DNA of 64,000 bases from Acidobacteriota bacterium (GTDB lineage Bacteria > Acidobacteriota > Vicinamibacteria > Marinacidobacterales > Marinacidobacteraceae). The position numbers and the translations under genes are program-made. The stretch covers positions 1 to 64,000 of the forward strand of contig JAJEIY010000061.1 of assembly GCA_022828085.1 (NCBI GenBank). Direction: 5' to 3'. This document shows, piece by piece, positions 53,211-58,640 of this stretch (positions within the stretch are counted from its first letter, which is position 1; each line of letters opens with the position of its first letter). Under the pieces are notes generated by a model. It saw only the letters and a program-made list of their open reading frames with translations, was not told the origin of the DNA and searched no databases.

Positions 53211-53593
53211 AGCCGCTGTTCCTTCGAAACGAGCGAAAAACAAAATGGCAGCGAACCTCGGGTTCGCTGCCGGCGTTTTCGGGGGAAAGTGTGAAAGGGG
53301 GTTACCCCCGTTCACAAAGAGGAAACGACAAATCGGAACTCGCCGAAGTGTGCGCCAGCACACGAGGGAGTTTCGGTTTGCGGCGCGAAGCGCCGGGCGG
53401 TCTCCGGATGGGGCCCGTAAGGCAATCAGACCTGACGGCCCAGCCCAGTTCCTGATCGCGGCCCCATCCGGGGACCGCTCGACGGGGTCGATGCCGGCCG
53501 GAGGCCGGCGCTCCGGGCCGGCGGAGCCAACCGCTGTCCTTTCTGAACGAGTGAAAAACAAAGCGGCAGCGAACCTGGGGTTCGATGGCCGCC
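53211..53593. repeat. Composite multi-hairpin intergenic element A
   Basis: Direct repeats 53211-53275/53529-53593; hairpins GGCAGCGAACC/GGTTCGCTGCC, GTGAA(A)GGGGG/CCCCC(G)TTCAC; 59-bp core 53320-53378; mini-hairpin GGCGC-GAA-GCGCC; 19-bp stem 53397-53415/53460-53478; GCCGGC hairpin 53490-53520. Confidence 0.85.
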
Positions 53594-53784
53594 AGGGTCA
53601 CGACCAGCAGGGAGAGTGCGCCCCAGATGAGGCGAACCTCTTTCTTGAGCACCGCGACGTCCGTCTTGACGGTTACGAGATCCGTCTTCACGGTCGCGAG
53701 ATCCGTCTTGACGGTCGCGAGATCCGCCGCGACCCGGTCAAGGGTGGCGGCGACCGACTGGATCTGGGCGCGGACGGTGCGATC

Positions 53785-53955
53785 TCACCAGCGACCGAGT
53801 TCCGCCCTCGGCGTCTCCGGCAGGTTCTCGGCGAGGAGCCAGCGGGCGAAGAGGATGCCCTCGCGGTATCCGGCCGTGCTGATCCAGTTCTGAGGCGCCG
53901 GCCGGTGGCTGAGGTAGATTTGCTTTGTGCGGGGTTCGTGCGGCCAGCGATCCCG
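53785..53955 (-). pseudogene. Coding-looking 56-codon segment in frame between TAG (53956-53958) and TGA (53785-53787)
   Basis: RDRWPHEPRTKQIYLSHRPAPQNWISTAGYREGILFARWLLAENLPETPRAELGRW*. Confidence 0.4.
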
Positions 53956-55176
53956 CTAACGCTCCTCGGACGAAGTACCGGTCAGGGAACTCGTGACCGC
54001 GAGGGCCATCACCGGGTAGAGCGTCCCGGTATACGTGATGAAGTGCCATGTCTCGGTATTGAGTGACTTCGTCCACCAGCGGCCCGACTCTCTCTGGTGC
54101 CGCCTGAGCCACTCCACGCCTCGCTGCACGGCGGGGTGCGTTGGCGGCACGCCCGCGGACGACAGCACTACGACCGCCAGACCGGTCTGGTGGCCATCGC
54201 TCGCGGGATCGCCGAAGTCCGCCTCGGCTCGCAGGCGTTCCGCGCGGTTGCCCCGGCCCCACTCCTCGGGCCGAGCGAACGAGCGAATCGACCAGCCCCC
54301 GTCCGGGCGCTGACGGTCCAGGATCACCCTGACGATGTCCTGCTTCTGGTCGGCGCTGACCACGCCCGGGAGATACCGGTCCGCCCAGAGCAACGCCACG
54401 CGAGCGTAGTCATGGGGAGGAGGGACCTCCCGCAGGTACTCTCGCAGACCGGCTACCTGCCTCTGCAACTCGGGGGAGGTGGCCTGCTCGAGCCATCCCG
54501 GAGCCAGACCCAGACTCATGGCCGCGACGGTCGCGAGCTGATACGCGTCGGACTCGAACGGCGGCCATGTGTCCGGCGAGTGCCACGCCCCGTCGTCCCG
54601 CTGAAGGCTGAACATGAGCTGAAGGGCCTGCTCGGTTTCGGGGGACAGCCGCCGGTCCACGTACGCATCCCAGGATGCCAGAGACGCGGCCAGATGCACG
54701 ACTTCCGCGGGGTTCACATCCTGCTGGAGCTCTCCGGGGTCCGCGGCGAGCCTGTCCTGAAGGCGCGCTTCGAGGAAGGCCCGCCAGCTTTCATCGGGCT
54801 GACCGAGACTCTCGGCGAGCTGCGGACGAACGATCCCGTACCAGCCCGTGGTGTGACACGAGACGCAGCCGCGGTTGTTCGCCCAGGCCTTGGCTCCATC
54901 CTCCAGGTAGGTGATCGCGCGCTCGATGGACAGATTCTCCGCCATCGGTTCATCCGCCGACGCCGGCGGGATGGAGATCTCTCCGAAGTGATACTGGTAC
55001 AGGCTGTGGTCACCCCACTGCGCGTGAAGCTCGGAGCCGAGAAGCGAAATCCCAGCGGACAGTCCGATGGCGGCGAGCGCGAGTCTCATAACCGATCGCA
55101 ATCCCAAGAGGTCCTTGTGTTGGGGGCTGAGGCTACGATCCATCGTAGACGCTCTTTCGCTGCCACGCAAAGACAC
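53956..55176 (-). CDS. Prenyltransferase/squalene-cyclase-repeat protein with N-terminal CxxCH motif
   Basis: Signal-like N-term; NRGCVSCHTTGWYG; repeats DDGAWHSPDTWPPFESDAY, RQRPDGGWSIRSF, RHQRESGRWWTKSL. Confidence 0.7.
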   Translation of the reverse strand: MSLRGSERASTMDRSLSPQHKDLLGLRSVMRLALAAIGLSAGISLLGSELHAQWGDHSLYQYHFGEISIPPASADEPMAENLSIERAITYLEDGAKAWANNRGCVSCHTTGWYGIVRPQLAESLGQPDESWRAFLEARLQDRLAADPGELQQDVNPAEVVHLAASLASWDAYVDRRLSPETEQALQLMFSLQRDDGAWHSPDTWPPFESDAYQLATVAAMSLGLAPGWLEQATSPELQRQVAGLREYLREVPPPHDYARVALLWADRYLPGVVSADQKQDIVRVILDRQRPDGGWSIRSFARPEEWGRGNRAERLRAEADFGDPASDGHQTGLAVVVLSSAGVPPTHPAVQRGVEWLRRHQRESGRWWTKSLNTETWHFITYTGTLYPVMALAVTSSLTGTSSEER

Positions 55177-55334
55177 GCGCGCGGGCGTGGCTCGTCGCGG
55201 AGGATGCGACCGTTTAGCGGGGGCGGCCGGCCGAGCCCGCCTACTGGCCGCCGACTTCGAGCCGAACTGGCCGGGGCCGGCGCGGTCGCACGGTTCTACC
55301 GCGAGGAGTCACCAACACCGCCGAACACCCGAAA

Positions 55335-55600
55335 AAACAAATGGCAGCGGACTCCGTTCGCTGCCCGCCTGACCGGGGGGAATGCGTGAAAGGGGGTTAC
55401 CCCGGGGGTTACCCCCTTTCACCGTCGTAGCGCGGCGAAAGCCGCGCCCAGACGCCGGAGCGGGAGTGGCTGGGTTCGGGGTTACCCGAACCCCAGGCGC
55501 TCCTGGCTCGGTAAAATAGGAAACGACAAATCGGAACTCGCCGAAGTGTGCGCCAGCACACGAGGGAGTTTCGGTTCCCGAGCCAGGAGGGGTTGGGAGC
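55335..55600. repeat. Composite multi-hairpin intergenic element B, 3' of pnp
   Basis: GGCAGCG...CGCTGCC; GTGAAAGGGGGT/ACCCCCTTTCAC; GCGCGGC-GAAA-GCCGCGC; GGGTTCGGG-GTTA-CCCGAACCC; 12-bp stem 55500-55511/55578-55589 enclosing the 59-bp core (55518-55576). Confidence 0.85.
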
Positions 55601-55611
55601 CGGGTTCCCCG

Positions 55612-57777
55612 CTACCGTCGGCGGTCGCCGCGATCGCGGTCGCGGCCGCCACGCCGCCGCGGCGGCCGGGGCGGCAGCGGCGGCAGGCCCGCCCGCTCCC
55701 TGATGATGTCCTTGCAGGAAAGGCGCGTCCGTCCGTTGCCGTCCACCTCGATGACCCGGACCTCGACCTCGTCGCCCTCCTGGAGTTCGTCCCGCACGCT
55801 GTTGACGTGGCGGTCCGCGATCTCCGAGATGTGCAGCAGGCCGTCCGTGCCCGGAAGGATCTCCACGAAGGCGCCGAAGTCCACGATCGTCTTCACGACT
55901 CCGTGGTAGTCGCGGCCGACTTCGGGAAGCTGGCTCACCGCGATGGATTCGATCCGCTCCTTCGCCCGCGCCGTGGACTTCGCGTCGAGCCCGGCGATGT
56001 GGATGGTCCCGTCGTCCGACACGTCCACCCGCGCTCCGGTCTCGTCGGTGATCGCCCGGATCGTCTTGCCGCCGGGTCCGATGACCTCGCGAATCTTCCG
56101 CACGGGAATCTTCATCGTGAGGATCGCCGGTGCGTACTGGGAAGTCTCGCTCCGGGGAGCGGGAATCTCGGCCGCCATGACCTTCAGGATCTCGATGCGC
56201 GCCCGCCGCGCCTGCTCGAGCGCGTCGCCGACGATGTCGAGCCGCAGTCCGGAAACCTTGATGTCCATCTGCAGAGCGGTGATCCCGTTGGCGGTGCCCG
56301 CGACCTTGAAGTCCATGTCTCCGTAGTGGTCTTCGGCGCCGGCGATATCGGTCAGCACCCGGTACTCGTCGCCCCGCGTGATGAGACCCATCGCGATTCC
56401 GGCAATGGGCGCCTTCAGCGGAACGCCGGCATCCATCAGCGAGAGACACCCCCCGGTCACCGCGGCCATGGAACTCGACCCGTTGGACTCCAGGGTGTCG
56501 GAAACCACCCGGATGGCGTAGTTGAACTGCTCCTCGCCCGGAATCGCGGGCAGGAGCGCGCGCTCGGCGAGCGCCCCGTGCCCGATCTCGCGCCGGCCGG
56601 GACCACGCATCATCCGGGCCTCTCCGACGGAGAACGCCGGGAAGTTGTAGTGCAGGAGAAAGCGCTTTTCCCCGGAGCCGTGTACCCAGTCGAGGCGCTG
56701 GCTCTCGCTGAGCGGCGCCAGGGTGGTGACCACGAGCGCCTGCGTCTCGCCGCGGGTGAAGACGGCGGAACCGTGGGTCCTGGGCAGGACGCCGACATCG
56801 CAGGACAACTGGCGAATCTCGTCGAACGCGCGTCCGTCGAGGCGCTTTCCTTCCTCCAGGATCGTGCAGCGGAGGATGTCTTCCTCCATCGCCTTGACGA
56901 TGCCGGAGGCAGCGGAGCGCTCTTCGTCGCTCCGGTCTTCGAGGCTGGAAGCGATGGCCGTCTTGACCTCGTCGACGGCCCGGGAAGCCTCGAGCTTGCC
57001 CGGCGTCTGCAAGGCATCCTTCAGCCGTTCGCGAAATCCGTCCGCGATTTCGGTGGCCAGGCCGGGATCCGGATCCTTCGCAACCACCACCTGTTTCTTC
57101 GGCTGGAGCCGGCTCACGAGTTCCTGCTGGATGCCGACGATGCGGCGGATTCCCTCGTGGGCGAAGCTGAGCGCCTCCACCATCCGGGTCTCGGGCACGT
57201 CTTCGGCCCCCGCTTCCACCATCACGATGGCGTCCTCGGAGCCGGCCACGACGAGATTCAACGCCGACTTGTCCAGATCGGAGAACGTCGGACAGAGAAC
57301 GAACTCATCGTCCACCAGTCCGACCCGGACCGCGCCGATGGAGGTGTCGAAGGGAAGGTCGGAGATTCCGAGCGCCGCGGCAGCGCCGGTGATCGCCAGC
57401 ACGTCGGAATCGTTCTCACGATCCGTGGACAGCAGGAGACAGGTGACCTGTGTCTCGCGCCGCCAGCCGCTCGGGAACAGCGGCCGCAGCGGACGATCGA
57501 TGAGCCGACAGGTGAGGATCTCCTTCTCGTTGGGCCGCCCCTCCCGCTTGAAGAAGCCGCCCGGGATCCGGCCCGCTGCGTAGAAGCTCTCCCGATAGTC
57601 CACCGCCAGCGGCAGGAAATCGACGTCGGGCCGGTCGCTCCGGGAAGCCGTGACCGCGGCCAGCACGACGGTGTCACCCAACCGGACGGTCACCGCTCCC
57701 GCCGCTTGCCGGGCGAGCCGGCCGGTTTCAATAATCAGATCGTTGCTGCCGATCCGGGTCTGTACCGTTTCAATCAA
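55612..57777 (-). CDS. pnp: Polyribonucleotide nucleotidyltransferase
   Basis: MIETVQTRIGSNDLIIETGRLARQAAGAVTVRLGDTVVL; KH VIGPGGKTIRAI; S1 domain. Confidence 0.97.
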   Translation of the reverse strand: MIETVQTRIGSNDLIIETGRLARQAAGAVTVRLGDTVVLAAVTASRSDRPDVDFLPLAVDYRESFYAAGRIPGGFFKREGRPNEKEILTCRLIDRPLRPLFPSGWRRETQVTCLLLSTDRENDSDVLAITGAAAALGISDLPFDTSIGAVRVGLVDDEFVLCPTFSDLDKSALNLVVAGSEDAIVMVEAGAEDVPETRMVEALSFAHEGIRRIVGIQQELVSRLQPKKQVVVAKDPDPGLATEIADGFRERLKDALQTPGKLEASRAVDEVKTAIASSLEDRSDEERSAASGIVKAMEEDILRCTILEEGKRLDGRAFDEIRQLSCDVGVLPRTHGSAVFTRGETQALVVTTLAPLSESQRLDWVHGSGEKRFLLHYNFPAFSVGEARMMRGPGRREIGHGALAERALLPAIPGEEQFNYAIRVVSDTLESNGSSSMAAVTGGCLSLMDAGVPLKAPIAGIAMGLITRGDEYRVLTDIAGAEDHYGDMDFKVAGTANGITALQMDIKVSGLRLDIVGDALEQARRARIEILKVMAAEIPAPRSETSQYAPAILTMKIPVRKIREVIGPGGKTIRAITDETGARVDVSDDGTIHIAGLDAKSTARAKERIESIAVSQLPEVGRDYHGVVKTIVDFGAFVEILPGTDGLLHISEIADRHVNSVRDELQEGDEVEVRVIEVDGNGRTRLSCKDIIRERAGLPPLPPRPPRRRGGRDRDRGDRRR

Positions 57778-58325: not shown

Positions 58326-58640
58326 TCCCGGTCCGGAGACCGGCGTTCCAAGCCGTATGCCCCATTCGGGGGGAAAGTGTGAAAGGCGGGCTGGCCCCCC
58401 TTTCACGAAAAAAGACAGCGCGAATCGGAAGTCGCCTGCCTCGCCGGATCGGCCTTTGTGGCCCAGCCCGGGACAGCATCATGCGGCGAGTTCCGATTCG
58501 GAGGCACGAAGTGCCGTTCGGGTTGGGGGTGGGGCGCTCTCCTACCGGTTGTCTGACATCGCATCTTGAACACGCGGAGGCGCCCCACCCCCAGCCCGAC
58601 CAGTGCGCGCGCCGGTCCGGGGACCGGCGATCCAGGACTC
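58326..58640. repeat. Composite multi-hairpin intergenic element C (including flanking GCCGGYC hairpins 58326-58355 and 58609-58640)
   Basis: GTGAAAGG hairpin 58379-58406; stem CGAATCGGAA.TCGCC/GGCGAGTTCCGATTCG; mini-hairpin GGCAC-GAA-GTGCC 58503-58515; 19-bp stem 58519-58537/58580-58598. Confidence 0.8.

What the first reader, a model, noticed from the sequence alone, without database searches (positions are those of the whole stretch)
53211..53593. Composite multi-hairpin element A, sharing an identical 59-bp core with element B
The core aggaaacgacaaatcggaactcgccgaagtgtgcgccagcacacgagggagtttcggtt occurs at 53320-53378 and again, 59/59 identical by eye, at 55518-55576. It has nested inverted repeats (GGAACTC...GAGTTTC; GTGTGC-GCCA-GCACAC). 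Element A is bounded by ~60-bp imperfect direct repeats (53211-53275, 53529-53593) and contains at least five hairpins in series. No ORF with normal codon structure explains it. The layout is modular, comparable in style to BOX/ERIC intergenic elements, but the sequence is not one I recognise.
Basis: seen in the sequence. Interest (0 to 1): 0.78.

Follow-up and report, generated by a model that had tools for sequence, protein, structure and literature searches.

The report
Mobile terminator hairpins hosting genomic islands
The repeated DNA in the window is one of about twenty to thirty copies of a hairpin-rich element that often sits just after the ends of genes in a group of apparently sponge-associated bacteria, probably stops transcription there, and is used as a docking place by two families of genomic islands, each choosing its own hairpin.

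Summary
The 59-bp core is identical at 53320-53378 and 55518-55576. Element A is a full copy of a ~250-bp modular five-hairpin repeat (H1-H5), followed by a REP-like hairpin and the truncated start of another copy. It is genus-restricted: 8/8 genus genomes, 0/185 others of its class at E<=1e-4, ~31 covariance-model hits (some fragments) in its own genome; no Rfam match. The relatives are MAGs deposited as Acidobacteria, apparently sponge symbionts. Three own-genome copies are absent from orthologous loci. On the minus strand H1 plus a T-rich tail is an intrinsic terminator in 43 copies examined, and the other end commonly abuts a stop codon or tRNA 3' end: probably a mobile 3'-end/terminator cassette. 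H2 and H4 are attachment sites of two distinct clades of P4-type tyrosine integrases; orthologous copies with and without the ~9-11 kb island were compared at two loci, giving exact junctions. Integrase clade predicts target: four coarse target types need the minimum three changes on the tree. Other clades dock at REP palindromes or tRNAs. H5 (constant length, covarying stem, unconserved loop) is unexplained. New variant of known kinds; how the element itself moves is unknown.

The parts
53232..53246 (-). A-rich left end (AGCGAAAAACAAAAT on the plus strand); on the minus strand the T-rich tail that follows H1
   Evidence: 43 copies, mean T 0.53 in the 15 nt after H1 versus 0.15 window background
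53247..53271 (-). H1 hairpin GGCAGCGAACC-TCG-GGTTCGCTGCC; with the tail a canonical intrinsic terminator on the minus strand
53289..53316 (.). H2 palindrome GTGTGAAAGGGGG-TTA-CCCCCGTTCACA; in other copies the attachment site of clade-1 P4-type integrase islands (shared core TGAAAGGGGG)
53320..53378 (+).
   Evidence: covarying pairs in lower and upper stem
53380..53396 (.). H4 hairpin GCGGCGCGAAGCGCC(GG); in other copies the attachment site of the H4 integrase clade (shared core GCGGCGC)
53397..53479 (+). H5: 83-nt hairpin, copy-specific covarying stem, unconserved loop, near-constant length
53480..53489 (.). right end CGACGGGGTC; in many copies directly abuts a stop codon or a tRNA 3' end of a minus-strand gene
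53490..53525 (.). REP-like GC-rich hairpin (GCCGGCCGGAGGCCGGCGCTCC), a separate, more widespread repeat family
   Evidence: query 279-313; RAYT-like gene flanked by a repeat of this kind
53526..53592 (+). truncated second copy of the element (left end and H1), interrupted inside the H1 3' arm at ~53584
53585..55329 (-). passenger segment between the two element copies: truncated coiled-coil gene and a 406-aa ORF (53956-55176) with squalene-hopene-cyclase C-terminal similarity and a CxxCH motif
   Evidence: 99.2% identical over 1.78 kb, inverted, at another locus in G004
55330..55437 (+). element B, left part (left end, H1, H2 with enlarged hairpin)
55471..55610 (+). element B, right part: extra module, H3 copy (55514-55576), start of the ~92-bp H3b module; H4 and H5 missing; abuts the 3' end of pnp (55612-57777 minus)
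58341..58520 (+). degenerate third copy (CM E = 3e-6)

Best explanation
The element is a dispersed, genus-specific 3'-end cassette. SHOWN: (1) It is a repeat of about 250 bp with modules H1-H5 and optional extra modules, polymorphic in presence at orthologous loci. (2) Its right end often lies 3-7 bp behind a minus-strand stop codon or directly at a tRNA 3' end, and on that minus strand it finishes with a sequence of canonical intrinsic-terminator form (H1 plus T-rich tail). (3) H2 and H4 are integration points of two separate clades of P4-type tyrosine integrases: islands of about 6-11 kb lie exactly inside these hairpins, bounded by short direct repeats (TGAAAGGGGG at H2, GCGGCGC at H4). INFERRED: the element gives the gene before it a hairpin-rich 3' UTR and a terminator, so it is tolerated or useful behind many genes. 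Integrases whose relatives recognise the 3' ends of tRNA genes have specialised on these hairpins and on REP palindromes, which provide many harmless landing sites per genome. Recombination between neighbouring copies and attachment sites then adds, deletes and inverts passenger DNA; in the window this could have left the two copies around the cyclase-like gene. How the element itself spreads is not established.
For: Copies and distribution. Element absent at orthologous loci. 3'-end placement: 18 of 45 distinct right flanks hold a minus-strand stop of a long ORF within 25 bp, mostly at 3-7 bp, against 7.3% of random window positions, and 3 more a tRNA within 200 bp; five own-genome copies read by eye abut minus-strand tRNA 3' ends. 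Terminator form. Attachment sites: L064; L268, with the same locus in G000 holding the element without the island and G004/G007/G008/G009 holding no element; L106 against its ortholog L055, and L274, for H4. In L064, L268, L106 and L274 both island ends were read. Clade-target match: (H2 dockers SH-aLRT 100, H4 dockers 97; three changes for four target types, the minimum). Two integrases dock back to back at H2 and H4 of one element (L098/L120). The integrases have the three expected Pfam domains.
Against: In H5 the G-T versus A-C asymmetry (19:3 cluster-by-position events, p = 0.0009) says the PLUS strand folds, whereas the terminator is on the minus strand, so a minus-strand 3' UTR cannot be the whole story for H5. 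27 of 45 right flanks have no long minus-strand ORF ending within 25 bp (three of these have a tRNA). One H2-clade integrase (L090) is not next to a recognisable element copy. No expression or recombination data exist. All genomes are fragmented MAGs and many contigs end at these repeats.
Confidence: 0.68

Rival explanations
1. The composite element is not a cassette in its own right but an accretion of scars: integrative elements docked at gene or tRNA 3' ends, restored the 3' end and terminator with their own attachment DNA, and later lost their interior, leaving a ladder of attachment-site hairpins.
For: Right end abuts tRNA 3' ends and stop codons, the usual place for integrase attachment; modules H3b and H2b come and go; an island end without its integrase was seen (the L059/L064 insert shares the H4-island right end).
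Against: H1-H5 occur in the same order in most copies, and H1, H3 and H5 were not seen as docking sites of any sampled integrase.
Confidence: 0.17
2. The element folds as single-stranded DNA and is moved by a hairpin-recognising single-strand mechanism, like REPs moved by RAYT transposases or folded attC sites; H5 is the recombinogenic hairpin.
For: Plus-strand G-T bias in H5; H5 stem covaries while its loop is free but its length near-constant; a Y1/RAYT-like gene sits amid REP-like repeats in this genome.
Against: Only one Y1 transposase was found in the genome, and it is surrounded by the other (REP-like) repeat; no GTAG tag recognised by eye; insertion sites too diverged to see a duplication.
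Confidence: 0.15
3. The plus strand encodes a structured regulatory or guide RNA, with the variable H5 loop as the specificity part.
For: Covariation in H3 and H5 and plus-strand G-U bias.
Against: 13 own-genome H5 loops match nothing strong outside element copies in 8 genus genomes; no Rfam match; no promoter-like site on a simple scan.
Confidence: 0.08
4. Repeat and junctions are metagenome assembly artefacts.
For: All are MAGs and contigs often break at these repeats.
Against: Same family and same junction types in eight separate genomes and an additional record (L184), at orthologous loci with conserved flanks.
Confidence: 0.03

Closest known systems
REP / BIME repeats and RAYT transposases
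   Same: Dispersed intergenic palindromes, composite arrangements; REPs are known targets of insertion sequences (PMC1525189) and are tied to RAYT transposases (PMC2817692). The companion REP-like repeat in this genome surrounds a Y1/RAYT-like gene.
   Different: The element is ~250 bp with five unlike hairpins in fixed order, one of near-constant length but free sequence; the enzymes docking in it are tyrosine integrases of genomic islands, not insertion-sequence transposases.
P4-type integrases with tRNA 3'-end attachment sites
   Same: Domain architecture, short direct-repeat core, docking at gene 3' ends; the nearest clades in the same genomes dock at tRNAs.
   Different: Here whole clades dock in dispersed, multi-copy non-coding hairpins, each clade in its own hairpin.
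PAISt island of Streptomyces turgidiscabies (8-bp palindrome at the 3' end of bacA, PMC4057263)
   Same: Tyrosine integrase using a palindrome at a gene 3' end; modular excision and expansion through repeated attachment sites.
   Different: Its described target is the 3' end of one gene, not a dispersed repeat family with several distinct sites.
BOX / ERIC / Correia-type composite repeats
   Same: Modular, dispersed, intergenic, hairpin-forming (from general knowledge).
   Different: No sequence relation was tested; terminator polarity and integrase docking are the features found here.
Integron attC sites and cassettes
   Same: Structured recombination sites near gene 3' ends, passenger genes between sites.
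   Different: The integrases here are P4-type with an arm-binding domain, and crossover cores are TGAAAGGGGG and GCGGCGC, not the attC core.

Membership tests
REP/BIME-like repetitive extragenic palindromes | short palindromic intergenic repeat in many copies | tested here: met
   (but ~250 bp and five hairpins, longer than a 20-40 bp REP)
REP/BIME-like repetitive extragenic palindromes | associated RAYT transposase flanked by the repeat | tested here: not met
   the single Y1 gene found is flanked by the other, REP-like repeat
Intrinsic (rho-independent) terminator | GC-rich hairpin followed by T tract downstream of a gene on the same strand | tested here: met
   H1 on the minus strand; gene placement
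Intrinsic (rho-independent) terminator | transcripts end there | not testable with these tools
   no RNA data
attB of P4-type tyrosine integrase (H2, H4) | island inserted at the site with a shared direct-repeat core on both sides | tested here: met
attB of P4-type tyrosine integrase (H2, H4) | integrase with arm-binding, core-binding and catalytic domains | tested here: met
attB of P4-type tyrosine integrase (H2, H4) | recombination in vitro or in cells | not testable with these tools
   needs experiment
Integron attC | IntI-type integrase without arm domain, R''/R' core | tested here: not met
   arm domain present; crossover cores differ
Known structured RNA family (Rfam 15) | match above gathering score | tested here: not met
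DDE-transposon MITE | terminal inverted repeats and target-site duplication | tested here: inconclusive
   empty sites found but too diverged to show a duplication

The most novel reading that the evidence does not exclude
A new kind of recombination hub: one mobile, terminator-bearing cassette placed behind many genes, whose separate hairpins are attachment sites for separate integrase clades, and whose variable hairpin H5 folds as single-stranded DNA and drives the cassette's own movement, so that gene 3' ends across the genome become interchangeable docking ports for islands.
Probability: 0.15. Interest if true: 0.82.

Novelty: new variant of a known kind. Interest (0 to 1): 0.62.

Why it matters
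It suggests a way for bacteria to offer many harmless landing sites for genomic islands: a dispersed 3'-end repeat instead of a few tRNA genes. Because each integrase clade uses a different hairpin of the same repeat, and tRNA-, REP-, H2- and H4-docking clades sit side by side in one tree, this genus is a ready system for asking how integrases change attachment-site specificity. These genomes carry 7 to 30 such integrase genes or fragments each, and one fully read island carries type III restriction-modification genes.

Tried and rejected
Guide RNA: 13 H5 loops searched in eight genus genomes, nothing strong beyond element copies. Known RNA: Rfam at gathering and at relaxed threshold, nothing credible. 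Viral origin of the core: five viral contigs hold the 20-mer; those that align do so only over short stretches, none holds the element. H3 G-T count (36:0) was not used as independent evidence, because most of it comes from one alignment column. A first all-mismatch count for H5 (31:24) used gapped alignments; the fixed-register count (27:3; 19:3 events) replaced it. The 2.25-kb insert of L059/L064 first looked like a third kind of docking, but its right end equals the H4-island end. Literature searches found no report of P4-type integrases docking in REP-like or multi-hairpin repeats; the library holds open-licence papers only.

Full report
OBSERVATION. The 59-bp core is identical at 53320-53378 and 55518-55576; the flanking direct repeats exist at 82%; hairpin content is 8 standard deviations beyond shuffles. 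Element A occupies about 53232-53484.

FAMILY. BLAST of the interval finds 54 matches in the window's own genome, about twenty to the element itself and the rest mostly to the REP-like hairpin. Among 60 genomes searched all seven congeners carry it; the few hits outside the genus are short and mostly to the REP-like part. A covariance model of H1-H4 built from 24 copies matches all 8 genus genomes and none of 185 others in the class at E<=1e-4 with strict filters; with laxer filters it gives 31 hits in the window's genome, some of them fragments or weak, 5-45 in congeners, and one weak hit in G009. Contigs with the same lengths and integrases in the public collection are MAGs named Acidobacteria/Acidobacteriota bacterium (SB0668_bin_14, RHO1_bin_67, bin61 and others); from the isolate names and my own knowledge these come from marine sponges.

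ANATOMY. Order: A-rich end, H1 (GGCAGCGAACC..GGTTCGCTGCC), H2 (GTGTGAAAGGGGG..CCCCCTTTCACA), H3 (the core), H4 (GGCGCGAAGCGCC), H5, CTCGACG. A 92-bp module H3b between H3 and H4, and another before H3, occur in some copies. H5 in 38 copies is 82.4 +- 2.7 nt long; its variable stem positions pair 93% within a copy and 62% between copies (0 of 5000 shuffles reach this), while loops are hardly more alike than shuffled sequence. In fixed register H5 has 27 G-T against 3 A-C pairs, 19 against 3 when counted once per cluster and position (p = 0.0009), pointing to folding of the plus strand. This remains unexplained.

PLACEMENT AND TERMINATOR. Own copies at L027, L034 and L045 are absent from the orthologous intergenic regions of several relatives. 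The right end lies within 25 bp of the stop codon of a long minus-strand ORF in 18 of 45 distinct flanks, mostly at 3-7 bp, against 7.3% for random window positions; three more have a tRNA within 200 bp; five own-genome copies read by eye end at minus-strand tRNA 3' ends. Some of the 45 flanks are orthologous to each other, so they are not all independent. On that same minus strand the element finishes with H1 and a T-rich tail: a simple terminator scan picks it out, and in 43 copies the 15 nt after H1 are 53% T against 15% background. I infer a portable 3' UTR and terminator. In the window lineage the ancestral place is probably behind pnp (55612-57777, minus), before purC: G006 has one element there, G005 two in tandem, G003 two around the passenger gene, as in the window.

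DOCKING. In L064 an island of about 6 kb with a tyrosine integrase lies exactly in H2, with TGAAAGGGGG at both ends. At the L027 locus three states are seen: no element (G004, G007, G008, G009), element alone (window genome), element with a 9.0-kb island in H2 carrying type III restriction-modification genes (G006, L268). At the L029 locus L055 has an intact element while its ortholog L106 has an 11-kb island in H4 (attB GCGGCGC/GGAGCGCC, shared GCGGCGC), with an integrase next to the junction; L274 shows the same for a ~10-kb island. The genus genomes hold 7-30 integrase matches of this family. Of 74 loci with an integrase match, 70 gave near-full-length proteins, 65 of them distinct; target hairpins were assigned from the 500 bp upstream by pattern and tRNA search, five relabelled by eye, and about a quarter stayed unassigned and were left out of the count. 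On the tree (quick method) H2 dockers are one clade, H4 dockers one clade, tRNA dockers sit beside H2, and REP dockers make up most of the rest; the four coarse target types need three changes, the minimum. One H2-clade member, L090, is not beside a recognisable element. L098/L120 has two integrases docked at H4 and H2 of the same element.

THE WINDOW. A and B are two copies around a 1.78-kb passenger segment that is 99.2% identical, but inverted, at a different locus in G004, where one join falls inside H1. This suggests recent movement, by recombination between element copies or by an island; the data do not decide which. No integrase hit from the search falls on the window's contig.

LIMITS. 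Everything is sequence inference from MAGs. Terminator activity, recombination and the element's own mobility are untested. The G-T bias conflicts with a purely minus-strand RNA role for H5.

Noticed in passing
L047:958-1806 (own genome C83): Y1 transposase of RAYT type, whose flanking reading frames are made of tandem copies of the REP-like repeat GTGCCGGTCGGAGACCGGCGTTCCAAGCCG: a likely REP-RAYT system in this genome.
   Followed up: partly
window 53584-55362 and L106: Passenger segment with a cyclase-like, CxxCH-containing gene, 99.2% identical between two species at different loci and in inverted orientation.
   Followed up: partly
L268, L106: Islands docked in H2 and H4 carry DNA methylase genes; L268 also a type III restriction subunit: possible defence islands.
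   Followed up: partly
window 53397-53479 and all copies: H5 keeps length and pairing but not loop sequence; no explanation.
   Followed up: partly
L149, L160, L167, L157, L165, L169, L171, L173, L175: Integrases of the REP-docking group whose target could not be assigned; two recurrent upstream contexts are seen.
   Followed up: no
L104, L107 (ortholog of the L029 site): Instead of the element, these genomes hold a ~600-bp insert with what looks like a small coding frame in the same intergenic region.
   Followed up: no
window 53653-53726: 21-bp tandem repeat encoding a coiled-coil (ATVKTDL) in a truncated gene next to the element; a related frame lies beside the REP-docked integrase of L044.
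   Followed up: no
L193, L215: About 51% identical integrases in alphaproteobacterial MAGs lie next to what reads as a tRNA 3' end.
   Followed up: no
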